DNA from: Desulfovibrio sp. JC010 | GTDB taxonomy: Bacteria; Desulfobacterota; Desulfovibrionia; Desulfovibrionales; Desulfovibrionaceae | Assembly: GCF_010470675.1 (NCBI RefSeq) | Contig: NZ_VOIQ01000010.1 | Location: 124,001-188,000, forward strand | Reading direction: 5' to 3' | Length of the DNA: 64,000 bases | In this document: positions 15,666 to 34,101 of the stretch, one piece after another | How the letters are laid out: each line of letters begins with the position of its first letter | Position numbering within the stretch: the stretch's first letter is position 1 | The notes under the pieces: generated by a model | Seen by the model: the letters and a program-made list of their open reading frames with translations, nothing else | Told to the model about the DNA's origin: nothing | Database searches by the model: none | Program-made: the position numbers and the translations under genes

Positions 15666-15723
15666 TGGTACCGGGAGCGAGACTCGAACTCGCAAGGGCG
15701 TGAACCCGGCGGATTTTGAGTCT
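15666..15723 (-). repeat. attachment site 2: displaced tRNA-Leu 3' half (E1/E2 junction)
   Basis: The same tRNA-Leu 3' segment as att1, from the CCA end through the anticodon stem, with the GCGAG/CTCGC T-stem. Identity with the intact tRNA ends after GAGTC. It separates E1 from E2. Confidence 0.9.
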
Positions 15724-15840: not shown

Positions 15841-15860
15841 AGTGGGGCATAAGTGGGGCA
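15841..15860 (+). repeat. E2 left arm-type direct-repeat pair
   Basis: AGTGGGGCA twice, 11 bp apart, ending 13 bp before the int2 ATG. The matching pair (18 of 20 positions) is at 30863-30882, at the other end of E2. Confidence 0.65.
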
Positions 15861-15873
15861 CGGAGAACATAGC

Positions 15874-17040
15874 ATGGCAGAGAAAAAACAACCTACCAGT
15901 TTCAGAGGTGTTCGATTCAGACCACACCAGACACGTCGACATGGCGTCAGAAAAGACCGCGACTACTTCATACGCTATACGACCGCAGAAAAAAAGGTCG
16001 AAGAATCTGTTGGATGGTCCTCTGAGGGAATGACCGCTGAAAAGGCGTCAATTATACGCAATGAACTGATTCAAGCCAATAAGCTCGGTCGCGGTCCTAG
16101 AACCTTAAAAGAGCGGCGGGACCAAGAGACACGTGAACGGGCGAAACAAGATCGAGAGAACGTCACATTTTCAGATTTTTTTCATAATACATATTACCCC
16201 CAAGCTCAGCTGGCTAAAGCTCCTAAGACTCATAAGGGAGAATTTCAGCATGTACGGGACTGGATTGCTCCCGTTGTCGGGGATATGATCATAAAGGAGA
16301 TTACGCCTGACGACCTCGCCATAATTGTTCAGAATTTAAATGACAAAGGGAGATCAAAAAGAACGATTCAGCATGTATTAAGCACTTTTCGAATCGTCTG
16401 GAACCACGCCAAAGAGCGCAATCTGGCTTCAGGAGACTGTCCACGGAAAGCGATAAAACTGGGCAAAATTGATAACGAAAGAACACGCTTTCTCAAACCA
16501 GAAGAAGTAAAAATTCTTCTCGAAGAAATCGCGAGCCGCGACACACGCGCTCACGACCTGACACTCGCCGCAGTAAACACAGGGGCACGCTTGGGAGAAC
16601 TTAGCTCTCTCACATGGAGAAATGTTGACCTTGTCAGACGAACACTAACAGTCATCCATACCAAGACACACAAACCGCGCACTTTTCCTATGACAGATGA
16701 TCTTTTCAATATGCTGTCACGACAAGAACAAGGAAGTGGTGCTGACCTTGTCTTCCCCAATAACAAAGGTGAAAAATGGAAAGAGCAACCTTGGGCATTC
16801 AGAGAAACCGTTAAAAAATTGGGATTTAACGATGGCATTGAAAGCTCTAAAGAAAGGCTTTCATTCCACAACCTCAGACATACAGCAGCGACACTAATGC
16901 TCATTGCTGGAGTTGACATAAGAACACTTCAAGACCTTTTCGGCTGGTCAACTACACAAATGGCTGCTCGGTATACGCATACAGTCAACGCGACAAAATC
17001 TAAGGCAGTGGAGGGACTGGGGAGAATTCTTTCGGGATGA
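15874..17040 (+). CDS. tyrosine integrase of element 2
   Basis: 388 residues from ATG 15874 (GGAG 8 nt upstream). The N-terminal domain FRGVRFRPHQTRRHGVRKDRDYF matches that of int3. Catalytic residues lie in TGARLGEL (Arg I), HNLRHTAATL (H-x-x-R) and the nucleophile Tyr near 367 in MAARYTHT. It ends in a TGA; eight more codons precede the next TAA, so within this TGA-rich element it is unclear whether the TGA is truly the stop, though the standard reading is likely. It recombines at tRNA-Leu(CAA). Confidence 0.92.
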   Translation: MAEKKQPTSFRGVRFRPHQTRRHGVRKDRDYFIRYTTAEKKVEESVGWSSEGMTAEKASIIRNELIQANKLGRGPRTLKERRDQETRERAKQDRENVTFSDFFHNTYYPQAQLAKAPKTHKGEFQHVRDWIAPVVGDMIIKEITPDDLAIIVQNLNDKGRSKRTIQHVLSTFRIVWNHAKERNLASGDCPRKAIKLGKIDNERTRFLKPEEVKILLEEIASRDTRAHDLTLAAVNTGARLGELSSLTWRNVDLVRRTLTVIHTKTHKPRTFPMTDDLFNMLSRQEQGSGADLVFPNNKGEKWKEQPWAFRETVKKLGFNDGIESSKERLSFHNLRHTAATLMLIAGVDIRTLQDLFGWSTTQMAARYTHTVNATKSKAVEGLGRILSG

Positions 17041-17177: not shown

Positions 17178-17408
17178 GACCTTTTCACATGACGCTGAGT
17201 GACAAAGGGTGACTGTTCTTATCCGCCTACCCAAAAATTATGTCTGATTGTTGGGTTGGTATCCATTTTTAGGTGTGCCTTGCGGCTGCCACCCATTCTT
17301 ATCGATTCTTTGCCTCTACAAGGCCGTACAAGAGCTTAACATCTCTCACCGTAACTCTGGCTTCTCCTCAATGCTTCTTATCCTTAGATCCTAATTCTCA
17401 GCTTGGGT

Positions 17409-17431
17409 AAAATATTCGTTATGAATATTTT
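17409..17431. promoter_or_regulatory. AATATTC..GAATATT palindrome upstream of 17549
   Basis: AAAATATTCGTTATGAATATTTTTT is a palindrome centred on TTA. Related copies occur at about 22720-22757, 25052-25072, 30405-30475 and inside the 67-bp iterons (30541-30780), only in E2. Possible binding site of an E2 replication or regulatory protein. Confidence 0.5.
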
Positions 17432-17548
17432 TTGTGAGATGGTGCTAGTGAACAGGGCATGCGATTCAAATAGCTTGTCGTGTTTTTCCCTTCACTAGAC
17501 ACTCCATAATAATGGAGATAATGCTCATGTGAATTATAAGGAGGAACG

Positions 17549-18616: not shown

Positions 18617-18634
18617 AAGGTTTATTTGCAATCC

Positions 18635-19078: not shown

Positions 19079-19334
19079 AGTTCAATCCATATTTTCTGAG
19101 TCTTGTTATCGTGAAATCTTGATATTCATTTTCATGGTTAATGTTGTTAGGCGTGCTAGGTTATAATAACCACATATGAATACAGCAGTATTTGCTAATC
19201 AAGTGTGATTTACTGCTACTCTTTAATTGCTATGATCAAATCAGGAGCACAGTTAAAGCATGTGCAAATAAATTATAGTTAAAGTTTAATTACGACATCG
19301 TTGTACATTTCATTTGTCATGTCATTACTTAGTG

Positions 19335-20366: not shown

Positions 20367-20428
20367 ATAATATTTGGAAGTTAAATGCTCTTGATTTTAA
20401 GTCCGTGGAGTTTAAATACTACTGATTG

Positions 20429-22225
20429 CTAGTGGCTACTATCTGAAATATGAAGTTGGTATATCTCTTTAATTCTTAAAAATGTTGGCATAAACCCAGA
20501 AAAGTTCATCGTTCTGAACGGTTGAATTCCTCTAGCAATCGAAACCGCAAAATTAGTCTTACTGAGCGCAATACTCTTTTCCGTACCATCCTTCTTCCTT
20601 AGGAAAACTTCATTATCGACAATCTTTTCATCGTTAGATGTTTTTTTCTTGGAAAAAATATTTGGGTTCATTTTGTGAACTGAATTACCATCAAATTCAG
20701 AGCTTAAATATAACCTCCTTCCGTACTCATCAGTTTTCAGCATATCGTGTAAATCGTATATCTGTTCTATTGCATATTTTTCGTAAATAGAACCTTCTGG
20801 CTTTTGGAGAAGAATGGAAAACACATTATTGCCATGGTCGATAAACTTTTTACCTTTATGCTTATTATTAATTCTTTCAAGATCACAATCGAATACACAT
20901 ACTACTGGATGACGATATGTCACATAATGATCTTTTGCAGTTGAGCAAAACGTCCATAGGTTATCTTCCCCACCTTTTTCTTTTCTGCTGTGCGGGTAAA
21001 AATATATTGGAAACGACAGTTCAGGATCACTACACAATCTTTTATATGCTGTCTTAAGGTGCATCCAGTCTGTTTGGCCTTCACCCAAAACAGTAACCAT
21101 GTCACTTTCGTTAATAGTAAGGTGTTTTAAACGCTCAATATATTTTTTATACGATTGACGCTCTAACAAATTCTTACTGTAGCCTAACCTATTCAATTTT
21201 GCCTTATTGCCTTTATGCTTCTCGTTTATTTCGAACCTTTTGTCTTTTACAGAACCTATCCATTCGAGCTTTCCCTTTATAATCTTCCCGAAGACAGTTT
21301 TATCTTCCTCTTCGTGCTGGTTGTTTCTGGTGTCATACTTTTCAATATACTTGGTATATGCCAATTCAAGGCCATTTACTTTCCAATCATGAAGCATCGC
21401 ACGAACTTGATTTATGGACCGCTTTCTGACGTTTGGAAAGTCGTTCACAGTTAAACCTGTTACTATTTGCCTATCAGATTGGGTTCTCAATGATGTTTTT
21501 TCACCATTAATTTTGAAACCATGGTCATCAATTATTTCAACCAAACCTTCTCCCGGATTCCAGATTCCATCAAAAAAAGCGATATCTTCAGGAAAATCCT
21601 TAACATTCGTCGAAAACGTTATGTCGTCGACATATCTCGTGTAGTAACAGCGATAATTTTTCGCGAGATCGCTTAGATCTCGGTCCATATGCGAACAGAT
21701 CATGTTCGAAATTATAGGAGAACATGGCGAGCCTTGAGGAAGAAAGTCATTATAACACGCAATCTTGGCAATGAGTATTGCGATACTGCGGTCTAATTTA
21801 TATGGATTAGATCGAAAAAGCCCCATAACTCTTCCGAAATGGATAGATGGAAAGAAATCTTTCAAGTCAACGTTGAATACGTATCGTTTCTTAGAATGGA
21901 CTAAGGCATTTCCGAATACTGTTTTATCTTGATTATTGTCAGATTTTTTTATGTAGCCATAGGCTGCTTTTTTAGGCTCATATACTCCAGAAAGCCTTAT
22001 TGCTAATGACCTCTGAATTGCCTTTAATGCTGTTGTAGGTGCTGAGATATTTCTATCGGTTCCGTTTCTCTTTTTAATCGTAAAATCAGTATATTGTCCG
22101 TTTGGGCCGCCATGTAATCCATACAGGATGTAACCAAAGTCTTTAGGAGTGAATCCGAGGTAAGTTGCGAATTGATGAAGACTTGTTATGCGTCGTAATT
22201 GCTTTAAACTTTCTTTTCTCTTCAC
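20429..22225 (-). CDS. retron reverse transcriptase fused to TOPRIM domain (Ec67-like)
   Basis: 598 residues. The RT part (~40-330) has the retron hallmarks: NALVH (106-110, the NAxxH X-motif), FNVDLKDFFPSI, LPQGSPCSPIISN, the catalytic YVDD (198-201) and VTG (255-257). The C-terminal half has a TOPRIM signature, GEGQTD (381-386) and VCVFDCD (442-448). Length and order match retron Ec67, whose RT carries the same fusion. RT copies the msd of the adjacent RNA into msDNA; the TOPRIM is taken to be the nuclease-like effector of the anti-phage response. It ends in TAG and uses only TGG for Trp. Confidence 0.93.
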   Translation of the reverse strand: MKRKESLKQLRRITSLHQFATYLGFTPKDFGYILYGLHGGPNGQYTDFTIKKRNGTDRNISAPTTALKAIQRSLAIRLSGVYEPKKAAYGYIKKSDNNQDKTVFGNALVHSKKRYVFNVDLKDFFPSIHFGRVMGLFRSNPYKLDRSIAILIAKIACYNDFLPQGSPCSPIISNMICSHMDRDLSDLAKNYRCYYTRYVDDITFSTNVKDFPEDIAFFDGIWNPGEGLVEIIDDHGFKINGEKTSLRTQSDRQIVTGLTVNDFPNVRKRSINQVRAMLHDWKVNGLELAYTKYIEKYDTRNNQHEEEDKTVFGKIIKGKLEWIGSVKDKRFEINEKHKGNKAKLNRLGYSKNLLERQSYKKYIERLKHLTINESDMVTVLGEGQTDWMHLKTAYKRLCSDPELSFPIYFYPHSRKEKGGEDNLWTFCSTAKDHYVTYRHPVVCVFDCDLERINNKHKGKKFIDHGNNVFSILLQKPEGSIYEKYAIEQIYDLHDMLKTDEYGRRLYLSSEFDGNSVHKMNPNIFSKKKTSNDEKIVDNEVFLRKKDGTEKSIALSKTNFAVSIARGIQPFRTMNFSGFMPTFLRIKEIYQLHISDSSH

Positions 22226-22243
22226 GGCAATCTCGCATTGTTA

Positions 22244-22394
22244 GGGTATCTGCTGTATAATTCTACATGCTGCGCAGCTCATGGCGTTAAAGTCAACCAG
22301 AGCCGTCGAACAGGCGGTGATAGCCAGCATGGCAACGTACAATAATCATCGATGGAGCACCGACAAAAAGGCAATTACTTTTCAGCAGATACCC
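22244..22394 (-). ncRNA. retron msr-msd RNA
   Basis: Just upstream of the RT on the same strand, the 12-bp sequence GGGTATCTGCTG (a1, 22383-22394) pairs perfectly with CAGCAGATACCC (a2, 22244-22255), the terminal repeat that bounds retron RNAs. Inside, CATGCTG/CAGCATG (22266-22272 with 22325-22331) closes a ~66-nt hairpin suitable as msd. Total length of about 151 nt is normal. A TTGACA lies about 35 nt upstream of a1. The branching G and exact msd end are not assigned. Confidence 0.82.
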
Positions 22395-22890
22395 ACCACA
22401 CTGTGAGCGAAACATTTATAATATGTCAAGAAGCTTTGTTCATGTGCTAAAGTAATTCGTAATTTCAACCCACTTCCTATTAAGGAGTACAATGAACTGA
22501 CTTTGCAAAGATTGATTATTACCTCTCCATTAAATATTATATTCCTCTTAATTCCAGAGTGAAAAAGGCTCAGTGATAAATCCATTGAGTGTGACCTCAA
22601 CTGATAGAAGCCCTGCTCATTCGCATTCTTTACCCCTTCGCACCGTCAATTGGTCTCTCTGAGTGGTAAGCCCTGCCTCACCTCAGAATGTTTAAATAAG
22701 GAGCAAATCTAAGATTTCAAAAAATATTAGTTATGAATATAAAATATTCGTAATTAATATAGCTAAATTCATTTTTTTCGCATAAAATACATATTTTTAT
22801 TTGACATTAGTGCGCAGCAGATTTAAAAGTTCTTCACTACCAACGAAACAGTTCATGAAATCGTTTCATCGGTACACCTAAGCTTAAGGC

Positions 22891-22960
22891 AGGGTGTGGT
22901 TAGGTGAGGTTCGGTCAGGCAAGGTCTGGTTTGGTGTGGTAGGGTAAGGTCTGGGGTGGT
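22891..22960 (+). repeat. pentanucleotide array, consensus NNGGT x 14
   Basis: Exactly 70 bp, 14 units. Twelve units are NNGGT, the others CAGGC and CTGGG. The two leading bases vary almost freely (AG GT TA GA TC CA AA CT TT GT AG AA CT GT) while GGT is fixed. This is unlike a slipped microsatellite, where whole units are copied. Confidence 0.9.
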
Positions 22961-22983
22961 TTAAAGACCACCAATACAAACAC

Positions 22984-23015
22984 GAACCCCGCTTCAAATA
23001 GGAGCGGGGTTCTTT
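22984..23015 (+). terminator. intrinsic terminator of the NNGGT transcript
   Basis: GAACCCCGCT, a 9-nt loop, AGCGGGGTTC, then TTT. A strong 10-bp GC-rich stem with a short U tract. Confidence 0.75.
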
Positions 23016-23097
23016 ACATAAAGCTTAAAAGACCGTTTCTTTAAAAGAATTTTGATCATTCAAAATTGAGTAAGCATTCTATATGCATAATTAAATT

Positions 23098-23451
23098 TTA
23101 AATAGCGTTGCATTTAACACCTTTTTCAATCTCACCGTTAAGAACTTTTTGGCAGTATTCCCAAGAATTTATCATTACCTCAGACTCCATATTGAGAACA
23201 TCAATCTCAGGTGAATTGTCCTTCAATTCGTAGGGCTTAACGCCCACCTTACGCCTGCGAGCATTAACCTTATCAATGTATTCTTGGCGCATAGGCGACA
23301 CGCCTCGTGCTCTGTCTTGGGCATCAGCGATGGAGTCATATACGTGATCATATTCTTCAGGAAAAAGTTCGCAGTGAAGATTTCTCAGAGGGGCAGTTCT
23401 ATCGACATAATCTTGCATTTTTTTCTTTAAGAATTTTTTGCGTTTTGACAT
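23098..23451 (-). CDS. unknown basic protein next to the resolvase
   Basis: 117 residues with GGAGG 5 nt before the ATG. The N-terminus is very basic (MSKRKKFLKKKMQDYVDR) and the middle is rich in Asp and Arg. No domain is recognised. It starts 23 bp after the serine recombinase on the same strand and may be a partner of it. TAA stop. Confidence 0.6.
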   Translation of the reverse strand: MSKRKKFLKKKMQDYVDRTAPLRNLHCELFPEEYDHVYDSIADAQDRARGVSPMRQEYIDKVNARRRKVGVKPYELKDNSPEIDVLNMESEVMINSWEYCQKVLNGEIEKGVKCNAI

Positions 23452-23474
23452 GCAGCCTCCATGAATTATGAAAT

Positions 23475-24050
23475 TTAAATTTGAGCTGTAGGATTTTTTT
23501 GATCACCAATATTTTTATAAATTGTCACCCGCGAAACACCGAACTCACGTGCGAGATGGGTCACTTTTTCACCGTTAGATTTTCTTTCAATTATCTCTGT
23601 CAGCTGATCGTTACTTAAAGCCCGTTTGCGGCCTTTATATTTCCCCTTTTGCTTGGCAATGGCGATGCCCTCGGCCTGTCTTTCACGAATCAGATTTCGT
23701 TCGAACTCACCGAATGCGCCCAGCATTTGAAACATCAGCTGTTGAAGGGGCGAAACCTGACCATTGAAAATCAAATTTTCTTTCATAAAATGGACCGCGA
23801 CACCCTTCTCGGAAAGTTCATCAACAATATTTTGAAGGTCTCTGAGGTTTCGTGCCAGACGATCAATACTATGCACATATAAGGTATCACCCTCTCGAAG
23901 GTAAGAAAGGCAGTCTGACAGTGCAGGGCGGTTTTTATCTTTGCCTGAAATACGGTCTTCGAACACCCGATCCAAATCAATGTCTGCTAATTGCCGTTCA
24001 GTATTTTGCAACAAGGAACTCACTCGAACATATCCGACACGTGCACCCAT
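23475..24050 (-). CDS. serine recombinase (resolvase/invertase family)
   Basis: About 191 residues from ATG 24050 (GTG at 24056 is also possible). The catalytic N-domain reads VGYVRVSSLLQNTERQL with the nucleophile Ser in YVRVSS. It also has HSIDRLARNLRDLQ, the long E helix (FGEFERNLIRERQAEGIA) and a C-terminal Hin-type helix-turn-helix (VTHLAREFGVSRVTIYK). It performs site-specific resolution or inversion. The upstream region holds several inverted repeats that could be its res sites. It may resolve E2 dimers or act on cargo. Confidence 0.92.
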   Translation of the reverse strand: MGARVGYVRVSSLLQNTERQLADIDLDRVFEDRISGKDKNRPALSDCLSYLREGDTLYVHSIDRLARNLRDLQNIVDELSEKGVAVHFMKENLIFNGQVSPLQQLMFQMLGAFGEFERNLIRERQAEGIAIAKQKGKYKGRKRALSNDQLTEIIERKSNGEKVTHLAREFGVSRVTIYKNIGDQKNPTAQI

Positions 24051-24056
24051 ACTCAC

Positions 24057-24546
24057 CCTCTCATGAAGTGTTAATTTGAAATCTTAAACACCAGCTTACA
24101 TATGTAAATAAACTATCAATACAACCCTATATTAACACATTTATAGAATTTGTAAACTGTAAGTGTGAGCTAGACTCTAAACTAGCACTTTAAATCTGAG
24201 GCATTACCCCTTAGCAAGCTGATGTTCTAATTCAATGTTCACACTCTATATACAACTACCCCATATGAACCCCATATTCATACGTTGTTTAATTAAAGAG
24301 AATTATCTTAATAATTAGGAGGCAAGTGAGAACTGTCTCATATAGCGTGCATGTGACGTATATGAGACCTATAAGGCAGCGCATTAGGTATGTATCATAT
24401 ACCCATACCTAAACGAGCAACTACAACACCCCTGTTCATATCAATAGGTAAAGGATATGGTCACAGTAGATTGATATACCTGAACAGATTCTCAGCACAC
24501 AAGCATATCAATCAACCATCACATCACTACTAAGCCACATGCACAC
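24057..24546. other. non-coding region with stacked inverted repeats (res/origin candidate)
   Basis: There are three inverted repeats in ~155 bp: GTCTCATATA/TATATGAGAC (24335-24344, 24359-24368), TTAGGTATG/CATACCTAA (24384-24392, 24404-24412) and CTGTTCATATCAAT with ATTGATA..TGAACAG (24432-24445, 24470-24487). There is no gene in either code. The place, upstream of the serine recombinase, and the tandem dyads resemble a three-subsite res locus or a replication origin. Confidence 0.5.
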
Positions 24547-24813
24547 CTACTCTCTGGGCCTTATCAAGGTCTCAGGGTTTGCTTCCATTACTGCCTGCTT
24601 CAGAATCTCTGGAACACCTTCACCAACGTAACTTTCAGGTCAGAATTCAGATGTGTCAGATCCGTGTACACCTTTAATGACATCTCTTAATCAAATATTA
24701 AGAACACGGTTACAGTAGGAACTCACAGATTTATCATGTGACTCCGCAAGAACCTTAAGACTTTCACAAAGACCTTCATCGACGTATACATTAAGTTTAA
24801 TGTTATTTTTCAT
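24547..24813 (-). CDS. ribbon-helix-helix protein with two in-frame TGA codons (read as Trp)
   Basis: ATG 24813 with AGGAG 7 nt upstream opens NIKLNVYVDEGLCESLKVLA then ESHDKSVSSYCNRVL, a typical RHH/CopG fold (strand followed by two helices). With the standard code it stops at codon 41. Reading TGA as sense at codons 41 and 58, the frame continues without TAA, TAG or frameshift through PESYVGEGVPEILKQAVMEA to TAG at codon 89. Likely a DNA-binding regulator or partition/relaxosome-type protein. It is one of four E2 genes with this property. Confidence 0.62.
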
Positions 24814-25096
24814 TTTTTACTCCTGATTGTATTGATATGGCAGATCTCTTTATTAGTCATATTTCAAATTACATTACTTTAAGATACTACCATAGTTTTA
24901 ATTCTACCTTTATTTATAAAAAAGTTACGTTACGTTAACGTTATTTTTTAAAACATACTGAACGGATGGCTTGTTACATTGAAAAATATGTGAGTTGATA
25001 TGATATTGTTTTTACCTTCAGGGTTCAGTATGAAGCAATTCTCAGTCTGGAAAAAATATTCGTAATGATTTTTTTATGATGCGGGGAAGTTTCCTG

Positions 25097-26929
25097 TTAT
25101 CCGCCTTCAATTAGCCGAAGAATGGTTCTCGGCATGGAGTTCGCTTGCGCGAGCATCGCCGTTGCTGACTGTGATAGAATCTGATCTTTCGTGAACTCGG
25201 TCATTTCATTAGCTACATCAACGTCAGAAATTCGAGATTCAGCAGCCTGTAGGTTCTCAGCTTGAATCGAAATATTCGTAGCGGAATTTTCAAGACGGTT
25301 CTGTGTGGCCCCAAGGTTGGCCCTGATTTTATCCTTCTTGATGATTGCATCATCAATAGCAGCAAGTGAGTACTGTGCGGCTGTCTGGCTCGCGACATTG
25401 AGGTTGCCAATCCCTAACCCTGAATCTGATATTCCAGCATCACCGGAAGTTATTCGATAAAAATCTTCAGCAGCGTCATTCCCTGCACCGAAGTGGATCA
25501 ATGGACCTGTGCTGCTCACTTCGCCAAGTTTGTAGATCTCGGTACCATCTGTAAGGTTAAAACTGGACGCATACACCTCATCACCGCTGGTTTCGATAAA
25601 CTGAAAAAATAAGTTGTTGGCATTGCCTAACCCATCCTGCGCTGTCTCATTCCATTCTCCATCGCTTTCGGACAGAAAATTGCCGCCTGTTACGTCGTTT
25701 CGTGTAGAGATAACTGGAACACCCGCAACATTATAAACCTCGGCAGTAATGTTATTCGGATCGCCGAAACCATCTAGGGTAATAGTTTTCCAACCGAATT
25801 CAGTTAGCTCGTAGACTTTTGCACCTTCAATCTCGTTACGGGTAGAAACGTATAGGTCACCATCAACCTCACTGAATCTTACCCTAATGTCATTGCTATT
25901 AAATCCGGGTAAATCTACATCGCTCCACTCGCCAGTCAAGCCGTCATACTGTTTAATCACAGAACCGCTGTTATTCGAGGAGCCTGCATACAGAGTCCCA
26001 TTATGATCGGTAAATCTGAGTCCATAGTTATCAGGGTCTCCGAATCCGTCCTCGGCGAGCATGGTTAGCTCATCGCCGTTGACTCTGTATAAAGAGCCTC
26101 CTGTGGTGGGGTTAGAGGCAGAAACATAAGTAACACCGCTAAACTCTTCAATAATACCACCTCTATTCGTGGTGTCTCCTGTAATTCCATTGTTAAACAG
26201 TTGCACCCAGTTTCCATTGCTGTCCATCTGGTGGATCTTGCCGCCAGTAGCAGAATCTGATGAATGAGCAGTCAACTTACCATCGATTATTTTTAATCCC
26301 GTAGCTCCGCCAGTTGGACTCAACCTGTTATCTGCGTTCGGAACAATCGGAGTCCATGTGCTCCCGCCATCGTAACGATAAACTCGACTTCGGTTGTCAG
26401 CGGCATATAGTTGCCCATTATATGAGACTATAGACCCTTCAACATTGCCAACTCCACCGAAGCCGGAAGTATTAATCTGTTGCGGGTCCATTTCAAATCC
26501 CAAAACTTCATCATTAATAATTTTGATCCCGTTGAAGTCTGTGGCTTCACTGATCCGCTGAATCTCATTTTTCATGGCCTGAAATTCATCATTAATAATT
26601 TGACGCTGGTCAGCATTGTACGTGCCTGTAGCGGCCTGAGTGGCGAGTTCTTTCATTCGGATAAGCTTTTCATCAATGACGGAGAGAGCACCATCAGCTG
26701 TCTGAATCATGGAAATTGCGTCATTGATATTTCGTACCCCCTGTTGGTGTGAGGCAATGTCAGACCTCATCAGTTCACGTATTGCCAGACCTGCGGCATC
26801 GTCTGCGGCGGTGCCAACCCGAAGACCTGAGGACAACCTTCGTGTCGAAACTCCCAGCGAACCGTAATGTTTACTCAAAGATTTAGCGGCAGAAGATGCC
26901 ATTAAATTGTGATTTATCGACAAGACCAT
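25097..26929 (-). CDS. flagellin with a beta-propeller-like insert
   Basis: 610 residues, twice a usual flagellin. Residues 1-150 are a canonical flagellin N-domain (SINHNLMASSAAKSLSKHYG, RLSSGLRVGTAADDAAGLAI); about 500-610 are the C-domain (NRLENSATNISIQAENLQAAESRI). Between them (~155-475) are about seven ~40-residue repeats with G.LY....N...G..IY..... patterns and Asp/Gly-rich turns, which suggest a seven-bladed propeller as the exposed D2/D3 region. There are no other flagellar genes near. It is exported and polymerised into the filament. TAA stop, TGG for Trp. Confidence 0.9.
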   Translation of the reverse strand: MVLSINHNLMASSAAKSLSKHYGSLGVSTRRLSSGLRVGTAADDAAGLAIRELMRSDIASHQQGVRNINDAISMIQTADGALSVIDEKLIRMKELATQAATGTYNADQRQIINDEFQAMKNEIQRISEATDFNGIKIINDEVLGFEMDPQQINTSGFGGVGNVEGSIVSYNGQLYAADNRSRVYRYDGGSTWTPIVPNADNRLSPTGGATGLKIIDGKLTAHSSDSATGGKIHQMDSNGNWVQLFNNGITGDTTNRGGIIEEFSGVTYVSASNPTTGGSLYRVNGDELTMLAEDGFGDPDNYGLRFTDHNGTLYAGSSNNSGSVIKQYDGLTGEWSDVDLPGFNSNDIRVRFSEVDGDLYVSTRNEIEGAKVYELTEFGWKTITLDGFGDPNNITAEVYNVAGVPVISTRNDVTGGNFLSESDGEWNETAQDGLGNANNLFFQFIETSGDEVYASSFNLTDGTEIYKLGEVSSTGPLIHFGAGNDAAEDFYRITSGDAGISDSGLGIGNLNVASQTAAQYSLAAIDDAIIKKDKIRANLGATQNRLENSATNISIQAENLQAAESRISDVDVANEMTEFTKDQILSQSATAMLAQANSMPRTILRLIEGG

Positions 26930-27026
26930 TTTCTACGAACTCCTCAACAGGAAATTTTTTCCGACTCAGGTCAACAGGAACCCTTGAAACAACACAAATC
27001 GAATCAACTTCGTCTTTCGTAGAAAA
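26929..27026 (-). promoter_or_regulatory. flagellin leader inverted repeat overlapping the start codon
   Basis: In the mRNA TTTTCTACGAA (27016-27026) can pair over 11 bp with TTCGTAGAAAA (26929-26939), whose last base is the A of AUG and which lies between GAGGAG and AUG. Pairing would hide the start site. The loop is 76 nt. Confidence 0.45.
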
Positions 27027-27032
27027 AATATG

Positions 27033-27048
27033 AGCAAAATTCATACCA
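27033..27048 (-). promoter_or_regulatory. sigma-54 promoter of the flagellin
   Basis: TGGTATGAATTTTGCT matches the -24/-12 consensus TGGCAC-N5-TTGCW with the exact GG-N10-GC spacing. It lies about 105 bp before the flagellin ATG. Late flagellar genes in Desulfovibrio-type bacteria are commonly sigma-54 dependent, so host flagellar regulators could drive it. Confidence 0.65.
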
Positions 27049-27106
27049 CTGTTGATTATTAATCATCATACCATTCACTACCATTGTCAGCCTTAAGGAG
27101 GCGACG

Positions 27107-27430
27107 ATGACAACACTTCAAGATGCATTTGGTAAACGGCTACGTGATATCCGTCGCAGGATGGATCTTACTCAGGAAAAATTAGCGGACTCCGCAGATA
27201 TGTCGGTTCAGTACATTTCCGATATTGAGCGCGGCAAAAGGAACCCTTCACTGTCGAGCATAGAAACGCTCGCAAGGGCCTTGGATATGTCTGTTTCAGA
27301 TCTTTTCAATATGGAAGAATTTCAAATTGATGCAGGTGAGATGAGAGATAAACTCATATCTAGAATTGAGCAGGCGGACGAAGAAAAGCTCCGTGTGTTT
27401 TTCGCCATTTCGCGGACGATACTTGGGTAG
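27107..27430 (+). CDS. XRE-family regulator
   Basis: 107 residues with AAGGAGG before the ATG. The N-terminal helix-turn-helix is LRDIRRRMDLTQEKLADSADMSVQYISDIERGKRNPSLSSIETLA. The C-terminal ~35 residues (MRDKLISRIEQADEEKLRVFFAI) are helical, probably for dimerisation. It is divergent from the flagellin and shares a 177-bp intergenic region with it, so it may control either the flagellin or E2 functions. TAG stop, no Trp. Confidence 0.85.
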   Translation: MTTLQDAFGKRLRDIRRRMDLTQEKLADSADMSVQYISDIERGKRNPSLSSIETLARALDMSVSDLFNMEEFQIDAGEMRDKLISRIEQADEEKLRVFFAISRTILG

Positions 27431-27564
27431 CTTCTGATTGATAGCCTCTTGCGTCGGTTTTAACCCCATGAGGGCTGTCTGACGGTCTCTCAGATGTTAT
27501 TCTGGGGTAGGATAAATCAAGATGGCAGCCCCATTACGGGACTGCCTCTTCTCTGGGGTAGTCG

Positions 27565-29025
27565 CTAACCGATCTTAATTTCGTTAGTAGTATTTAGCAC
27601 ACTCTGAAATTCAGAGAGCATCAGACCATGAAGGAATTCTTCGTCTTCAGCCTTCATTAAAAAGCTGTCATGAATCGGAATGCACGGTTTACCTAGCTCC
27701 ATACATCGTGAAAGTATCCTTGATACGATGAGTGAATCAAGACATTGGATTGATCTACCTGTCTCGGTGAAGAAGTACTTCTTGATCGGGGCATGATGTT
27801 GAGTGAGACTATCAAGTATTTTTCAAATCTCCCAATCCTCAAGTTTACCTCTGGGTACTGCCTTCCTGATTGCTTCGTAGGCAGCCCTTTTCCCCCGTGT
27901 ATTGAAAATAATCAACATTGATTTTTTTACATAGGGACGAAGGGGTTCAAATCCCGGAATAGTGTAAAGATCACCATGTGGTGGGACTATACCCTCAAGA
28001 GCGTACAAGAGGTTTAAATGATAGCTCGAAAAGTCAAGCTCAATCACCTTTGAATAATTGATTAAAACCTGCTTGCGTAAGTGGTATGGCAGTCCACTTT
28101 TACACAGTTTCTTCTGCCAAAGACACTGAACCCAATGACCGTACCAACGTCCACCTCAGGCGAAATAACGACCTGTGGATTCATCGTAATTGAATGATCT
28201 TCGAAGATACGGAAACCGAAAAGCATCTGGATACTGACGACGGCACATTTCTAATCCATACTGCTGCTCTGGGGTTAGTTCGTCCATTGAAAAATGAAAC
28301 TTCGATAGGAAGGTATTGTAAGCTGTGATGAATCCTTCTTGCTGCTCAGAACTGAAATAAAATTTGAACCCGTTTAGATCATGCAGGACAATTTCACCTT
28401 CAAAATGTTCATAAGGTATGAATTTTGATTGCCTGCGCTTCTTCCCCTTTTTACCCTTGACTGGGGCCTTCCAGATCTTTTTGACTGAAATTGGATTTCT
28501 TATGAGTTGCAGACTAGAAAGATCAATTTTTCCAGAGAGATGACTTTGAATAATGCTGATCAATTCCAATTTTGGAAGAAAAAAAGATCTGATGCTTTCA
28601 TATTTAAGGTCATCATCCTCAGACTCCTCAGATTCAGTTGGGAGTTCAAATGTTTTCCCCTGACAGATCCGAACCAACTTGAATTCCTCAAGCTGATCCA
28701 TAACTGACATAACCCATTTGGAATATCCACGAGGATTTCTGGGATTTGATGATACTCAGTAATTTTTATCCCGTGAAAGTGTGATGGCATCTGCGCCTTC
28801 ATCAATCAGAATAAGTGTATTGAGGATCAATTGGTTAATTAAGTCCCGTGCTTTTAAGCGGGTGGTTTTATATTTAAACATCTGATTAACGCCAGCAATG
28901 CCACAAAGTTCGTCAGCGCATGGGGTCATAATTGCATTAAGGTCATCATCAATGTTGAAAAATTTCATTCAAACCAGATGAATACTCTTCATCAGTTGAT
29001 AATCGTTATTGTCAAATTTAATCAT
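27565..29025 (-). CDS. Pol-A-fold polymerase-like protein with four in-frame TGA codons (read as Trp)
   Basis: ATG 29025 has AAAGGA upstream. TGA occurs in frame at codons 19, 90, 290 and 401; with these as sense, 486 residues run to TAG with no other stop or frameshift. C-terminal motifs: GGRWYGHW (~291), VIELDFSSYHLNLLYALEGI (motif A-like, ~327-346), R-x3-K with LRPYVKKSMLIIFN (motif B/O-helix-like) and PIHDSF (motif C-like, ~446). These resemble family A DNA polymerases or single-subunit RNA polymerases. Trp is also encoded by TGG six times. Probably the E2 replication polymerase; the exact family is unidentified. Confidence 0.65.
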
Positions 29026-29404
29026 TTTATATTCCTTTGTTTAAAGTATTGAAGAAGAAACCATTAAACCTATCAAGGTATTTAATGTATTACCCTTTTT
29101 TTTATTTCTCTATTCTTTCCTTCTCTCTTTTTCATTTTCCCCTCTCTTCATTAATAGGACATTTTGAAATCATTGAATCAGAATAAATGTTAACCACGTA
29201 ATCGAAACCCTCACCATACCATAAACATTATTTTGTTTCGGATTAATTCGTCATAACCACTTATTTTCTAACAACATTTACTAACTTTAAAGCTAGTATC
29301 GATATCAATATTCCAACCTGTCACAATAAAGACGGGCTGTTTCAACTATTACATTTAACTGATTTAGATCAGCCCAACACATAGCTTTTCAACCCGACTT
29401 TTAA
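29026..29404. other. AT-rich non-coding gap
   Basis: No supported gene in either code. It contains a purine/pyrimidine-skewed tract (29095-29157, CT-rich on plus) and a possible 17-codon basic leader frame (29082-29135, minus) just before the polymerase gene. I see nothing else. Confidence 0.5.
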
Positions 29405-29944
29405 CTAATTAATTCAAGGACTTTCCCTTTGCAATGGGCGACCCATACCATATTTAATATAAGCATCTCTTACTACTTCAGTGATATAGTTTTTTTCATC
29501 CTGTACAAAGTCTAAGCCAACATTCACGAATTTCACCTTTTGCCCTTGAATTACACGATGTAGCTCTTTCCAGCTTTCAGCAAAGGCCAATTCTCGCCCC
29601 TGACTTCTTGTTCATCCATCAGCTTCTCACTTATAAATCAGCCCACGATCGATCACGTCAACTAGTAATGAATTTGTTGTACAAACCAAAACACCTTTAC
29701 CTAAGGCTTTAGCGACACTACCTTCTATCACCGAAGCAATCGTTGCAGGTTCTTTACCGTAGCAAGTTTGATCTGTATCAACATTTACAAATTCATTAAC
29801 CATTCCTCTATAGTTACAAGATGCTATACACCCATAGTAATTACCAAAAACACTACTTATGCGACTACTAGTCGCAACCTTCAATATTGCTCATTCATTT
29901 TTATCGAATGGCACAGAAGTACAGTTAAAATCTATTACATTCAT
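29405..29944 (-). CDS. RNase-H-like protein with four in-frame TGA codons (two at conserved Trp sites)
   Basis: ATG 29944 has AAGGA 7 nt upstream. TGA lies in frame at codons 18, 106, 111 and 177, and TAG ends the 179-residue frame. The order ..GLIYK-TGA-EADG-TGA-TRSQGRELAFAESWKEL aligns with the bacterial RNase HI segment W-x3-G-W-x-n-LW, so codons 106 and 111 coincide with the two invariant Trp (E. coli W85 and W90). The acidic active site looks lost: the positions of D10 and D70 read Ser and Asn (VATSSR, TTNSLL). It is perhaps a structural or nucleic-acid-binding RNase H homologue working with the polymerase. Confidence 0.62.
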
Positions 29945-30035
29945 AATTTTTCCTTCTCATGTTACAAAGTTTAAAAATAAGATGCTACGGCCTGCTTTAG
30001 CACAACCGACATCTCGCAGATTCAATACCTGAAAC

Positions 30036-30254
30036 CTACAACGCATCTAGCCATTCCAAAAAATCTCTTTTCAGGTAGTAGACTTTCCCGGCTTCGACCC
30101 CCTTCACAGGGCCTGCTCCACTAGAATCAAGATTAGCCAAGCTTCCACGTGTATACGGGACACCGAATTCTTTTCGATATTCAGCCCACTTCGAACGTCA
30201 AAGCACAGATGGAAGCACATGATTTAACTCAGTGCTCAAATTTTTCACATACAT
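30036..30254 (-). CDS. AlpA-like/excisionase protein with one in-frame TGA codon (read as Trp)
   Basis: ATG 30254 (GGAG 11 nt upstream). The frame gives VLPSVL-TGA-RSKWAEYRKEFG then VPYTRGSLANLDSSGAGP, then GKVYYLKRDFLEWLDAL and TAG: 72 residues. The pattern (sLANLds.G.GP...gkvyY....f..WL) is that of small AlpA/MerR-like helix-turn-helix proteins next to integrative elements, and is shared with the standard-code homologue at 56363 in E3 (GYLANLDSQGRGP). Likely directionality factor or regulator. TGA is codon 19. Confidence 0.62.
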
Positions 30255-30540
30255 AAGAGTCACAACTCCATTAGTTAATGTTATATAACAAGCATGCACT
30301 GAAAAACCATTACATTCAGCACAGCAATACCGAAAACATGCAAACCATGCTAGACAACACTCACTGTTGTGTCAATAGCTTTTTTGATTTTTCTCATATA
30401 CTTTAAAATATTAATTATGAATTTTTTATACAAAACAAGATCAAACCACATAATTTAATATTCATAATTAATATTTAACATCACAATTAGACGCAAATGC
30501 ATAATATATACTCAAAAAATACATTAGCAATATTAATAAA
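30255..30540. other. AT-rich non-coding gap
   Basis: No gene in either code. It contains AATATTAATTATGAATTT-type dyads (30405-30475) related to the E2 palindrome family and leads into the 67-bp repeats. Confidence 0.5.
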
Positions 30541-30780
30541 ACACTCAGAATATTTACAGTGAATATTATATACATATTAAAAATATTCATTATTAATAAT
30601 TAAGCAGTCACTCAGAATATTAATAGTGAATATTTTAAACATACTAAAATTACTCATTATCAATAATTAAGCACACACTCAGAATATTAATAGTGAATAT
30701 TTTAAACATACTAAAATTACTCATTATCAATAATTAAGCATACACTCAGAATATTAATAGTGAATATTCTAGGACACACT
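30541..30780. repeat. 67-bp tandem iterons (3 full copies plus a partial fourth)
   Basis: The anchor CTCAGAATAT recurs at 30544, 30611, 30678 and 30745, an exact 67-bp period. Each unit contains GAATATTAATAGTGAATATT and a second dyad near ATTATCAATAATTAAGC. The middle copies are nearly identical. AT content is very high. Position next to the element end and near a polymerase-like gene suggests an origin or partition site. Confidence 0.85.
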
Positions 30781-30862
30781 AAAAAAGACTCATGGCGAAC
30801 AATTGAGAAAGGGCGAAAGCTGACGAAAACATCACTGACTATCATCTGCTTTAACCTATAAA

Positions 30863-30882
30863 AGTGGGGCAGGAGTGGGGCA
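30863..30882 (+). repeat. E2 right arm-type direct-repeat pair
   Basis: AGTGGGGCA twice, 11 bp apart, ~60 bp inside att3; pairs with 15841-15860. Confidence 0.65.
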
Positions 30883-30888
30883 GATTTT

Positions 30889-31000
30889 ACCCCAACAAAA
30901 AAAGGACTCACAGCATAAAAGCTGTAAGTCCTTGTAATATCTGGTACCGGGAGCGAGACTCGAACTCGCAAGGGCGTGAACCCGGCGGATTTTGAGTCCG
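30889..31000 (-). repeat. attachment site 3: displaced tRNA-Leu 3' half plus terminator (E2/E3 junction)
   Basis: 30942-31000 repeats the tRNA-Leu 3' part to GAGTCCG, with the GCGAG/CTCGC T-stem. 30895-30938 repeats the tRNA terminator. The block is nearly identical to att1, including the flanking CCCCAACAAAAAAAGG. Confidence 0.9.
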
Positions 31001-31119
31001 TTCTATCAAGCTTCACAATAAATCACGAGATTTAATTTAAACCAACTTAAACTTTGTTTTTATTGAATTTTATACTAGAAAACCTTCATAAATCATCACT
31101 TGTGATCATTGTCCATCCT

Positions 31120-31149
31120 CCAAAAAAGTTGTACAGGAGTTGTACAAAA
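31120..31149 (+). repeat. E3 left arm-type direct-repeat pair
   Basis: A 30-bp block with GTTGTACA twice 11 bp apart, repeated without change at 57612-57641. It ends 14 bp before the int3 ATG, so integrase binding could also repress its own gene. Confidence 0.75.
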
Positions 31150-31163
31150 ACTTGGAGATAAAA

Positions 31164-32351
31164 ATGGCAACAAGATCGAAATGGAATAAAACAAAGTTCC
31201 CCGGAGTTCGCTACCGGGAGCATGAAACCCGCAAACACGGCATCCAGCCGGACAAATATTACACCATCACCTACAAGTATAAAGGCAAGACCAAAACCGA
31301 AGCCATCGGCTGGGCCACTCAAGGTATCAAAGCACAGGATGCGGCAAACATTCTCAGCGAGCTTAAAGTCAACCAGACGCAGGGCAAATTCCCCCAGACG
31401 CTGAAGCAAAAAAAGGAAATGGCCGCATTTGAACTCGAAGAACAGGAAGCACACGCAAAAGCAGAGAAAGCCAAAGGTATCACCTTTGATGAAATCTGGG
31501 AGCAATTTTATCGACCACAAGCGGAAGCCAACAAAGCAGCCAAATCATGGAAGCGAGAAGAAAGTTTGCATCGCATCTGGATTTCACCGGCCATTGGCAA
31601 AATCCCCTTTGCCGGTGTCTCAGCCACTGACCTTGAAAAAATAAAAATCAACATGGCTGAGAAAGAACTCAGCCCCCGCTCCATACAGTATGCGCTTGCG
31701 ACCGTGCGCCAAGTATACAATGTTGCCAAGAATCTGGATATTTTCAAAGGCGATAATCCAGTCAAAAAAATCAAAATGCCCAAAATGGACAACCGGAGAA
31801 CACGATTCCTTTCAGAAGATGAAGCTGTTCAGCTCCTTGAAATTTTGCAGGAAAGGAACCCTTTACTGCATAGTGTATCTTTGATTTCCCTTTACTGCGG
31901 ACTGCGGGCAGGTGAAATCATTGAGCTTGAATGGCGCGACTTAAACTTCGCAGAAGATATGATTTTGATACGTGATGCCAAGAATGGATTTTCCCGCCAT
32001 GCTTTCATGACCAAACAGGTCAAGCTGCAACTCCGGGAAATGCGCAAACAGGTCGCCCCCGACCAGAAGCCGGTATTCAGCGCACAACGCGGCGAAAAAC
32101 TTAATGAGGTCTCCAGACTTTTCAATGAAGCAGTTGACGAGCTGGGCTTAAATGTCGGTATCGACGACCGCAGGCAGAAAGTTGTTTTCCATACCCTGCG
32201 CCACACTTTTGCAAGCTGGCTGGTTCAGCGAGGCACTCCGCTCTACACCGTAGCAAAGCTCATGGGCCATTCCACTCTGGCTATGACTGAGCGGTATGCC
32301 CATCTTGCACCGGACAACTTGAAAGCTGCTATAGCTGTTTTGGAAAATTAG
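31164..32351 (+). CDS. tyrosine integrase of element 3
   Basis: 395 residues from ATG 31164 (GGAG 7 nt upstream); an upstream TTG lies inside the arm repeat and is unlikely. The N-domain KFPGVRYREHETRKHGIQPDKYY is like int2. The catalytic domain has CGLRAGEI (Arg I), HTLRHTFASW (H-x-x-R) and Tyr near 378 in MTERYAHL. It targets tRNA-Leu(CAA) and is the enzyme for the most recent integration, next to the intact tRNA, if insertions were sequential. Confidence 0.93.
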   Translation: MATRSKWNKTKFPGVRYREHETRKHGIQPDKYYTITYKYKGKTKTEAIGWATQGIKAQDAANILSELKVNQTQGKFPQTLKQKKEMAAFELEEQEAHAKAEKAKGITFDEIWEQFYRPQAEANKAAKSWKREESLHRIWISPAIGKIPFAGVSATDLEKIKINMAEKELSPRSIQYALATVRQVYNVAKNLDIFKGDNPVKKIKMPKMDNRRTRFLSEDEAVQLLEILQERNPLLHSVSLISLYCGLRAGEIIELEWRDLNFAEDMILIRDAKNGFSRHAFMTKQVKLQLREMRKQVAPDQKPVFSAQRGEKLNEVSRLFNEAVDELGLNVGIDDRRQKVVFHTLRHTFASWLVQRGTPLYTVAKLMGHSTLAMTERYAHLAPDNLKAAIAVLEN

Positions 32352-32380
32352 CTTTTCACTATTTTATGTAGTGGCCTTTT

Positions 32381-32422
32381 GTACCCAGCTACACTGTTGC
32401 GAGACATCAGGGAGCTGGGTAC
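32381..32422. terminator. bidirectional hairpin between int3 and the ATPase gene
   Basis: GTACCCAGCT (32381-32390) and AGCTGGGTAC (32413-32422) form a perfect 10-bp inverted repeat between convergent genes. It is probably a shared terminator. Confidence 0.55.
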
Positions 32423-32428
32423 ATAATT

Positions 32429-33655
32429 CTATCTCCAAAGCATACTTATGGGGACAGCAAACAAGTCCTCTCCGAACGGTACAATATCTTTGCCGCCATA
32501 TAAAACAACACCAGCTTTGAACTTATCGCCAAGATCTTCTTTCAATGTTTTTAATCCCCGGAAATGTTTAGGGGCTACTTGGGCGGATTGTTTAATTTCT
32601 ATGCAAGCTATTTCGCCGGAAGTTTTTTCCAGAACCATATCCACTTCAAGTCCGGCATGGGTGCGGAAGTGATACGGAGTGGCTGAAACATTGCTCCATG
32701 TCAGGTGTTTGAGCACTTCATTGACCACAAAAGTTTCAACGAGCTGCCCGGCGAGTTCGGGTGTGTTCTTCAGTCGATCAGCGTCTGCGCCCATGAGGTG
32801 AGCCGCAAGCCCGCAGTCCACCAAGTAAAGCTTGGGAGATTTGACCAGACGTTTACCTAGATTCGGTCCCCATGCCGGAAGAAAATGGATCAGGAATACT
32901 TTTTCAAGCAGGTCCATGTAGCGGCGAAGTGTCGCATTGGGAATCTGCATGGTTCGAGATAGTTCCGACAAATTGAGCTGATTGGCTGTACGTGTTGCGA
33001 GCAGCCGCACAAGCTTAAGCATGACGGCTGTTTCCTGAATACGGGCGATGTCGCGTATATCCCGCTCAATGATGGATGTCAGGTATGACTCAAACCATGC
33101 ATCCCGCCGCTTTAGCGATTTGCGAGCCATGACTTCAGGATAGCCGCCCGTGACAATCATTTCGGGAAGATCGTATTCGTTCGTTTCGTATTCACGTATG
33201 AAATCTTTGTTGAACAATGTCTCCACAAAATCTGCCTTGTGCCTATGGATCTCGACTTGGGCTAGAGGCCAGAGAGTCTGTATCTCCATGCGTCCGGCAA
33301 GTGAATCGCTTACAAGTGGCAAAGTCAGCAGATTTGCAGAACCTGTCAGAAGAAATTGCCCCGGCTTTCTGTCATTATCCACTGCCTCTTTGATTGCCAG
33401 CAACAATTCCGGGACACGCTGCACCTCATCAATAATAAGCGGCTTCGGCTGTCCGGCAATAAAAGCCGTTGGATCATCGGCAGCCAAGGCCAGAGATGTG
33501 GCATTGTCGAGAGTGACATACTTGGCTTTATAGGCATCAGAGAGAAGATTTTTGACCAAAGTGCTTTTACCCACCTGTCTGGCCCCGCGCAGAAAAAGAA
33601 CGGGGGAATCTTCCAGTGCCTCAACAAGTTCTTGAGTGATATTTCGTAAGTACAT
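32429..33655 (-). CDS. AAA ATPase with DUF4143 domain
   Basis: 408 residues. The Walker A is LRGARQVGKSTLV, Walker B LIIDEVQRVPELLL, sensor FLLTGSANLL. The C-terminal DUF4143 has a winged-helix-like part (LNLSELSRTMQIPNATLRRYMDLLEK) and the PD-(D/E)xK-like end FRTHAGLEVDMVLEKTSGEIACIEIKQS. This is a large family of orphan ATPases of unknown role. It is convergent with int3. Length and motifs are complete. Confidence 0.9.
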   Translation of the reverse strand: MYLRNITQELVEALEDSPVLFLRGARQVGKSTLVKNLLSDAYKAKYVTLDNATSLALAADDPTAFIAGQPKPLIIDEVQRVPELLLAIKEAVDNDRKPGQFLLTGSANLLTLPLVSDSLAGRMEIQTLWPLAQVEIHRHKADFVETLFNKDFIREYETNEYDLPEMIVTGGYPEVMARKSLKRRDAWFESYLTSIIERDIRDIARIQETAVMLKLVRLLATRTANQLNLSELSRTMQIPNATLRRYMDLLEKVFLIHFLPAWGPNLGKRLVKSPKLYLVDCGLAAHLMGADADRLKNTPELAGQLVETFVVNEVLKHLTWSNVSATPYHFRTHAGLEVDMVLEKTSGEIACIEIKQSAQVAPKHFRGLKTLKEDLGDKFKAGVVLYGGKDIVPFGEDLFAVPISMLWR

Positions 33656-33944
33656 GGTGAAATATTTACCACCTAATGGTAAAATTTCAAGGTAAAAATG
33701 TAGTACTCAAAATATGAGCGAGCGTCCGTTTGCGGCGAAGCTTATTATCGCCATACATTGAACAGTAAAGCCTGAATCATGATATTTTTTGATACTGGAT
33801 GATATTTTTTGAGAAATTTTGATTTAGTTTGATTCAGATTGATTTTCTTTGCCATTATTCTTTATTGTGCGAGATTATTTGCTATTTTTCCAAAACTGCA
33901 CCCAAAATACCAAAAAATGGCAAACTTTCTCATGGTGCCATAAG

Positions 33945-34042
33945 GCAGGACAGGTAAGGTAGTCCCACTTTTTCAAAGCGGTGTACCTTACGTCCTGCCC
34001 AGCCTTGGGCTGAGGGTGACTTATTCACCTTCGGTTCAACGT
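33945..34042 (+). other. oriT-like sequence, copy A
   Basis: About 98 bp, 94% identical to the reverse complement of 53938-54037. It contains GTAAGGTA/TACCTTAC (33954-33961, 33984-33991), immediately followed by CGTCCTGCCC, which fits the MOBP nick consensus YATCCTG/Y closely. A second dyad is GGTGA..TCACC. The neighbouring copy lies right upstream of mobC, the canonical oriT position. Confidence 0.72.
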
Positions 34043-34101
34043 GTTTTGATTGATGGGACTTAAGGACTGCTCAGCTTTAATCGTCACGATTAAAAATATA
34101 T

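What the first reader, a model, noticed from the sequence alone, without database searches (positions are those of the whole stretch)
24547..30254. Four E2 genes use TGA as a sense codon (11 in-frame TGAs)
24547-24813 (TGA codons 41, 58), 27565-29025 (19, 90, 290, 401), 29405-29944 (18, 106, 111, 177) and 30036-30254 (19) are each one continuous frame from an ATG to a TAG if TGA is sense. There is no internal TAA or TAG and no frameshift; three have a good Shine-Dalgarno and the fourth a distant GGAG. Random decay would also give TAA, TAG and indels. Trp is also written TGG nine times. Neighbours in E2 (retron RT, flagellin, resolvase, XRE) are standard-code and host genes end in TGA, so a recoded set of backbone genes sits in a standard-code chromosome. 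This would be a mobile element whose replication and control genes are silent unless UGA is decoded.
Basis: seen in the sequence. Interest (0 to 1): 0.95.

Follow-up and report, generated by a model that had tools for sequence, protein, structure and literature searches.

The report
UGA-as-tryptophan genes in standard-code chromosome
Four genes of a mobile element in a normal-code bacterium spell the amino acid tryptophan with the stop word UGA about as freely as with the normal word, so a small recoded gene module seems to sit inside an ordinary chromosome, and how it is read is unknown.

Summary
All four frames run ATG to TAG with 11 TGA and no TAA or TAG. They do not look like pseudogenes. 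In alignments with X at each TGA, two TGAs of an RNase H-like protein fall on Trp in 11 of 11 relatives, one in a small protein on Trp in the two relatives of its subtype (9 others Ala/Ser), and two in a family-A-like DNA polymerase on Trp in its two closest relatives only. A same-genus genome holds a 27%-identical, gapless 88-codon homologue of the first gene with two TGAs, one in the same column, beside a resolvase and an 87%-identical intergenic segment. TGA:TGG is 11:9, close to A:G-ending codons (116:77), so the genes seem to have evolved under efficient UGA=Trp decoding. Nine other genes of the element have 0 TGA and 27 TGG. Among 70 host tRNA hits none reads UGA; only tRNA-Sec does, though the draft assembly lacks some tRNAs. 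Best reading: a replication/maintenance module from a UGA=Trp mobile replicon, mostly silent past the first UGA unless a suppressor is present. A rival is the host's own tRNA-Trp, which has the U11-A24 pair of the Hirsh suppressor. The decoder was not found.

The parts
24547..24813 (-). P0001, 88-aa gene, weakly ribbon-helix-helix-like; TGA at codons 41 and 58; stop TAG
   Evidence: (RHH_5 and DUF6364 at E about 0.01, below cut-off); homologue with 2 TGA in G007
27565..29025 (-). P0002, 486-aa family-A-like DNA polymerase (phrog_4756); TGA at 19, 90, 290, 401; stop TAG
   Evidence: 4.9e-45; Foldseek, Taq Pol I E 3.6e-4, TM 0.30; phage DNA polymerase Barba31A E 2.5e-18
29405..29944 (-). P0003, 179-aa RNase H-like protein; TGA at 18, 106, 111, 177; stop TAG
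   Evidence: (phrog_531 6.2e-5)
30036..30254 (-). P0004, 72-aa small protein of unknown function (no Pfam or PHROG match); relatives in many genomes; TGA at 19; stop TAG
24315..24416 (.). intergenic segment between P0001 and the resolvase gene, 87% identical to the same place in G007; likely resolvase site (inference)
23475..24056 (-). serine resolvase/invertase; no Trp codon and TAA stop, so neutral to the code
30532..30771 (.). 67-bp AT-rich direct repeats with inner inverted repeats upstream of P0004; possible iterons/operators (inference)
15666..15722 (.). left att-like copy of the tRNA-Leu 3' end (E2 boundary)
30942..30998 (.). right att-like copy of the tRNA-Leu 3' end (E2 boundary)
15853..17040 (+). 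tyrosine integrase of E2; standard code, 7 TGG, stops at TGA
   Evidence: (PF00589 7.8e-33)
20429..22225 (-). retron type I-C reverse transcriptase-Toprim; standard code, 5 TGG
25097..26929 (-). flagellin, standard code, 5 TGG, lying between recoded genes
27107..27430 (+). XRE-type (HTH_3) regulator, no Trp

Best explanation
P0001-P0004 are intact genes in which UGA means Trp. They form a small replication/maintenance module (polymerase-like, RNase H-like, RHH-like and one small protein, with repeats and a likely resolvase site) that evolved in a mobile replicon in which UGA was read efficiently, and that is now part of an integrative element in a standard-code chromosome. Shown: the frames, Trp identity at five of eleven TGAs in some or all relatives, conservation past the TGAs, TGA/TGG usage like other A/G-ending codons, no TGA in nine other E2 genes, no UGA-Trp tRNA among the host tRNAs found. 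Inferred: the origin, that in the resident state translation mostly stops at the first UGA, upstream of the polymerase core, and that full products appear when a UGA-reading tRNA is present, for example from a recoded phage or plasmid in the same cell.
For: Frames and TGAs. Trp at TGA columns with X in the query: P0003 TGA106 and TGA111 are W in 11 of 11 RNase HI-like proteins; P0004 TGA19 is W in the 2 relatives of its longer subtype; P0002 TGA19 and TGA90 are W in its two closest relatives. The relatives had been found with W at the TGAs. The polymerase core lies after the TGAs: residues 291-400 match 46 of 53 homologues and 402-486 match 52 of 53 at E<=1e-3. Second recoded copy in G007, gapless over 88 codons, both ending TAG, with similarity after the shared TGA (permutation 0.0002). 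TGA 11:TGG 9 against NNA 116:NNG 77, Fisher P 0.81; nine other E2 genes 0:27. GG dinucleotides not depleted, 1.01 against 0.98. Of 70 host tRNA hits, 69 got an anticodon and none is UCA; tRNA-Sec is.
Against: No donor replicon and no suppressor tRNA was found. In viral contigs the P0001 and P0003 scans gave no relative (patterns with Trp may miss TGA; P0004 was not scanned there) and none of the 23 P0002 homologues has a TGA in the aligned stretch. Both recoded loci lie in one genus (2 of 345 genomes), which suggests they function there. Two E2 genes (15853-17040, 18635-19078) stop at TGA, so an efficient suppressor would extend them. P0002 TGA290 and TGA401 columns are Trp in none of 53 homologues, and TGA19 and TGA90 in only 2. 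In the RHH-like pair, identity by codon position after codon 41 is 0.36/0.40/0.34. P0003 TGA18 and TGA177 have no aligned relatives. P0002 is the only one seen of its family with TGA: 53 homologues have none.
Confidence: 0.5

Rival explanations
1. Native decoding: the host's own tRNA-Trp(CCA) reads UGA often enough. Its D-stem has U11-A24, the pair created by the Hirsh UGA-suppressor mutation, so the recoded genes are expressed at reduced level in this genus.
For: U11-A24 in 16 of 17 genus genomes (not G002) but 1 of 13 others whose tRNA-Trp was read, 30 of the 46 genomes with a match; two tRNA-Trp matches in each of the 17 genus genomes; both recoded loci are in this genus and both hosts (L196, L199) have A24. 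G24A raises UGA reading in E. coli (PMC11805395 and PMC13092985, passages).
Against: TGA is used as freely as other A-ending codons, which weak readthrough does not predict; four UGAs in P0002 would multiply losses. Sampled host genes end in TGA in 110 of 544 cases, with a back-up stop within five codons in 30 of 110 against 93 of 434, P 0.20. 2,414 of 3,438 bacterial tRNA-Trp genes with a 4-bp anticodon stem carry A9C and/or G24A (PMC13092985, passage), so A24 does not mark recoding. The base after the TGAs is mixed: 4 A, 4 G, 2 C, 1 T.
Confidence: 0.27
2. Conditional lock: the element is a satellite whose backbone genes are kept in UGA code so that they are made only when a helper phage bringing an opal suppressor infects.
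For: Backbone genes recoded, cargo standard; phages with UGA read as Trp and suppressor tRNAs exist, often in part of the genome (PMC7886860, passages); a retron of a defence type is in the same element.
Against: No helper or recoded phage was seen: of the terminase matches with TGA only in the listed part, 7 were fetched and have TGA-free stretches of 444-620 aa; the others were not checked. None of 13 E2 proteins scanned matched a structural or packaging family clearly.
Confidence: 0.12
3. Pseudogenes, or G-to-A hypermutation turning TGG into TGA.
For: UGA stops in a standard-code chromosome; genes with in-frame stops are over-represented in the mobilome (PMC7918605, passage).
Against: 0 TAA/TAG in 825 codons, Trp at aligned TGAs, G007 copy, no GG depletion.
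Confidence: 0.05
4. Dead relic of a recent transfer from a bacterium that uses UGA=Trp throughout.
For: TGA usage like other A-ending codons; GC3 0.36 against 0.57 for 11 long ORFs elsewhere in the window, some of them in other elements.
Against: The closest polymerase relatives found are standard-code genes of the same family (G028, G316); other E2 genes share the low GC3, 0.38; a second, very divergent copy in the same genus.
Confidence: 0.06

Closest known systems
Partially recoded phages (crAss-like, UGA=Trp or UAG=Gln in part of the genome)
   Same: UGA read as Trp in part of a mobile genome; some lack a detectable suppressor tRNA (PMC7886860, passages; PMC11210395, passages)
   Different: here an integrated element in a chromosome; replication/control-like genes rather than mostly late genes; no clear phage structural gene among the E2 proteins scanned, no suppressor tRNA found in the element
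phrog_4756 / ICP1-like and Rheinheimera phage small DNA polymerases
   Same: sequence family and fold
   Different: 53 homologues examined have no TGA in the aligned stretch
RNase HI
   Same: two conserved Trp five residues apart, with TGA at both
   Different: Asn where 10 of 11 relatives have Asp (TDS in 9, SDS in 1); that this is the catalytic Asp is recalled
Hirsh tRNA-Trp UGA suppressor
   Same: U11-A24 in the host tRNA-Trp (numbering by hand, E. coli wild-type pair recalled)
   Different: activity unknown; 5-bp anticodon stem by eye, CCA anticodon

Membership tests
UGA=Trp (code 4) genes | TGA aligned to Trp in homologues | tested here: met
   5 of 11 TGA columns have Trp in some or all aligned relatives, 1 more is shared as TGA with G007; P0002 290 and 401 are not Trp, P0001 58 aligns to Tyr, P0003 18 and 177 have no relatives
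UGA=Trp (code 4) genes | open frames with no other stop, conservation after the TGA | tested here: met
   strong for P0002, weaker for P0001
UGA=Trp (code 4) genes | a tRNA that reads UGA as Trp | tested here: inconclusive
   none among 70 host tRNA hits (150 of 195 candidates scored); but no tRNA-Ile(GAU) or tRNA-Ala(UGC) is among them, so the 64-contig assembly lacks tRNAs. Pattern search in 17 genus genomes: 59 matches, backward control 58; 30 loci run through ARAGORN, no tRNA
Recoded phage/prophage | structural or packaging genes | tested here: inconclusive
   13 E2 proteins scanned against Pfam and PHROGs, none clearly structural; one terminase-small-subunit match at E 0.06 for 19335-20366
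Selenoprotein genes | UGA = Sec with a SECIS element | not tested
   no dedicated SECIS search; Rfam scan of 18500-34500 gave nothing; tRNA-Sec present; Trp, not Cys, at the TGA columns that have support
Pseudogene | mixed stops and indels | tested here: not met
Family-A DNA polymerase | sequence/fold similarity | tested here: met
   model pLDDT 75.8, TM about 0.3 to Pol I, so distant; sequence profile against PDB found nothing
Family-A DNA polymerase | polymerase activity | not testable with these tools
   none

The most novel reading that the evidence does not exclude
A chromosomal element carries its replication and control genes in a private UGA=Trp code within a standard-code bacterium, so they stay silent until a UGA-reading tRNA arrives, and the element follows a recoding helper replicon.
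Probability: 0.2. Interest if true: 0.95.

Novelty: new variant of a known kind. Interest (0 to 1): 0.75.

Why it matters
Stop-codon recoding in bacterial mobile elements is easy to miss: gene callers that assume code 11 break such genes, and one large code screen left viral and mobile-element protein families out (PMC8629427, passage). Two divergent recoded loci in one genus give a testable case of how two codes share one cell, and whether a tRNA D-stem variant is enough.

Tried and rejected
Hypermutation: no GG depletion. Suppressor tRNA in the element or host: none seen; the low-scoring hit at G000:C15:25918 gave no ARAGORN tRNA and reads by eye like a decayed Lys tRNA. Divergent tRNA hits in five relatives were tRNA-Arg. 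4-bp anticodon stem (PMC13092985): not so in the host by eye. Recoded prophages by terminase: 7 TGA-only matches checked, none recoded. Other recoded genes in about 790 kb of the host plus the window and L155/L156: 115 candidates with TGA as sense, 59 with TAG, 7 each with Shine-Dalgarno and score over 0.1; the script crashed before the TAA control; 6 TGA candidates were viewed and look like antisense frames, operon fusions or chance. This scan is weak: none of the four genes was in its printed top 14. P0003 fold without alignment was useless, pLDDT 34. P0002 single-protein scans of genome contigs and viral contigs: no relative. Phage tblastn of P0003: none. Plasmid tblastn of P0001, P0003, P0004: none; P0002: 3 records, under 50% of the query each. 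Likely resolvase-site core in viral contigs and genome contigs: none, though neither G000 nor G007 seems to be held there. A4 scan of viral contigs: none. P0001 in 148 relatives also hit G093, no stops, E 0.006. Rows dropped: L143 has only a partial P0004 alignment with a gap at the TGA column; phmmer rows with E>0.01; 11 of 13 other-genome matches had loci. L259 was fetched but not analysed. My notebook speaks of 62 pattern matches; the right count is 59. The 1 TAA that one search lists in P0002 lies upstream of its ATG.
Full report
Observation. The four frames are on the minus strand and are as described. TGA is the only in-frame stop: 11 TGA, 0 TAA, 0 TAG over 825 codons, where a random frame of the same composition would show about 17, 23 and 17. 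All four end in TAG. By length alone the two short frames are not beyond chance.

Setting. Near-identical copies of a tRNA-Leu 3' end lie at 5877-5983, 15666-15722, 30890-30998 and 57647-57753 (tRNA-Leu), so the window holds a tandem row of integrated elements. E2 spans about 15666-30998. It carries a tyrosine integrase, a retron of type I-C, a flagellin and a resolvase, an HTH_3 regulator and the four recoded genes. Two of its genes, 15853-17040 and 18635-19078, stop at TGA.

What the genes are. P0002 belongs to phrog_4756 (4.9e-45), with relatives in 235 phage records and in 36 of 348 genomes of the class, own included. Its model (pLDDT 75.8) finds family-A DNA polymerases first, at TM about 0.3, and phage proteins including one named DNA polymerase. 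P0003 is RNase H-like (phrog_531 6.2e-5; PDB RNase H1 0.002). P0001 is weakly RHH-like. P0004 has no Pfam or PHROG match; relatives were found in 24 of 58 genomes, own included.

Does TGA mean Trp? The relatives were found with W at the TGAs and then aligned with X there. P0003 columns 106 and 111 are W in 11 of 11 relatives, all RNase HI-like and several from one genus. P0004 column 19 is W in L141 and L142, the two relatives with the same longer form; nine other rows that cover it have Ala or Ser. P0002 columns 19 and 90 are W in the two closest relatives (about 32% identical) and in none of the other 51, where D/N and Y prevail; columns 290 and 401 are W in none. In these two relatives none of the six TGG columns is W either, so Trp drifts in this family. 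P0001 column 41 is TGA in G007 too, column 58 is Tyr there, and G007's other TGA (codon 32) faces Ser.

Constraint. P0002 segments after TGA290 and TGA401 match 46 and 52 of 53 homologues at E<=1e-3; segments 91-289 and 20-89 match 2 and 0, and 1-18 none. So the well-conserved core lies beyond three or all four TGAs. The P0001 and G007 genes are both 88 codons, align without a gap at 27% identity, and have similarity after codon 41 (permutation 0.0002), although identity by codon position there is 0.36/0.40/0.34, against 0.60/0.65/0.23 before it. Beside both lies a resolvase gene, and between the two genes DNA 87% identical over 102 bp. Searches of 345 genomes found these two only by DNA; the RHH alignment gave two further weak hits, one without stops and one with mixed stops.

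Which code did they evolve under? TGA makes up 11 of 20 Trp codons; A-ending codons make up 116 of 193 in five other A/G-ending codon pairs of the same genes (Fisher P 0.81). Nine other E2 genes have 0 TGA and 27 TGG with a similar A-ending preference, 0.63. This suggests that UGA cost little when these genes evolved. It disfavours weak readthrough and mutation, and there is no GG loss. Twenty Trp codons are a small sample.

How is UGA read now? The 70 tRNA hits of the host were looked at; 69 have an anticodon and none is UCA. tRNA-Trp is CCA only, in two identical copies, and one tRNA-Sec reads UGA. The search scored 150 of 195 candidates, and tRNA-Ile(GAU) and tRNA-Ala(UGC) are missing from the set, so a tRNA could lie in unassembled DNA. 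The tRNA-Trp D-stem is U11-A24 in 16 of 17 genus genomes and in 1 of 13 others read. G24A is the Hirsh suppressor change in E. coli (PMC11805395, passages), and 2,414 of 3,438 bacterial tRNA-Trp genes with 4-bp stems carry A9C and/or G24A (PMC13092985, passages), so this is a candidate and not proof. Sampled host genes end in TGA in 110 of 544 cases, with another stop within five codons in 30 of 110 against 93 of 434 for the rest (P 0.20), so strong general leakage is not evident.

Judgement. Recoding of these genes is well supported (about 0.85). The step from recoding to mechanism is open. I prefer an origin in a UGA=Trp mobile replicon with near silence in the resident state (0.5), then native decoding by tRNA-Trp (0.27), then a helper-dependent lock (0.12).

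Literature. Recoded phages with UGA=Trp, often in part of the genome and not always with a suppressor tRNA, are known (PMC7886860 and PMC11210395, passages). In-frame stops in bacterial genes are over-represented in the mobilome (PMC7918605, passage). Searches touching recoded mobile elements listed none that I recognised from titles and the starts of abstracts; the lists were capped and the library holds open papers only.

Noticed in passing
window 5877-5983, 15666-15722, 30890-30998, 57647-57753: Four near-identical copies of a tRNA-Leu 3' end delimit a tandem row of integrated elements.
   Followed up: partly
window 56381-56545: A standard-code relative of P0004 (Ala at the TGA column) near the right end of the neighbouring element.
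   Followed up: partly
window 25097-26929: Complete flagellin with about 380 residues between its two terminal domains, carried inside the mobile element.
   Followed up: no
window 29405-29944; L078: RNase H-like proteins with TNS (P0003) or SQS (L078, G007) where 10 relatives have TDS or SDS; perhaps inactive forms.
   Followed up: no
L155 1137-1403: The recoded RHH-like gene of G007 also stops at TAG; with the window, 5 of 5 recoded genes use TAG although TAA is commonest in the host sample (284 of 544).
   Followed up: no
G000:C15:25918-25988 (L059): Weak tRNA-like sequence (30.5 bits), no ARAGORN call; possibly a decayed tRNA-Lys or att remnant.
   Followed up: partly
G001-G016 and G000: Two tRNA-Trp matches in each of 17 genus genomes; most relatives outside the genus show one once tRNA-Arg hits are set aside.
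   Followed up: partly
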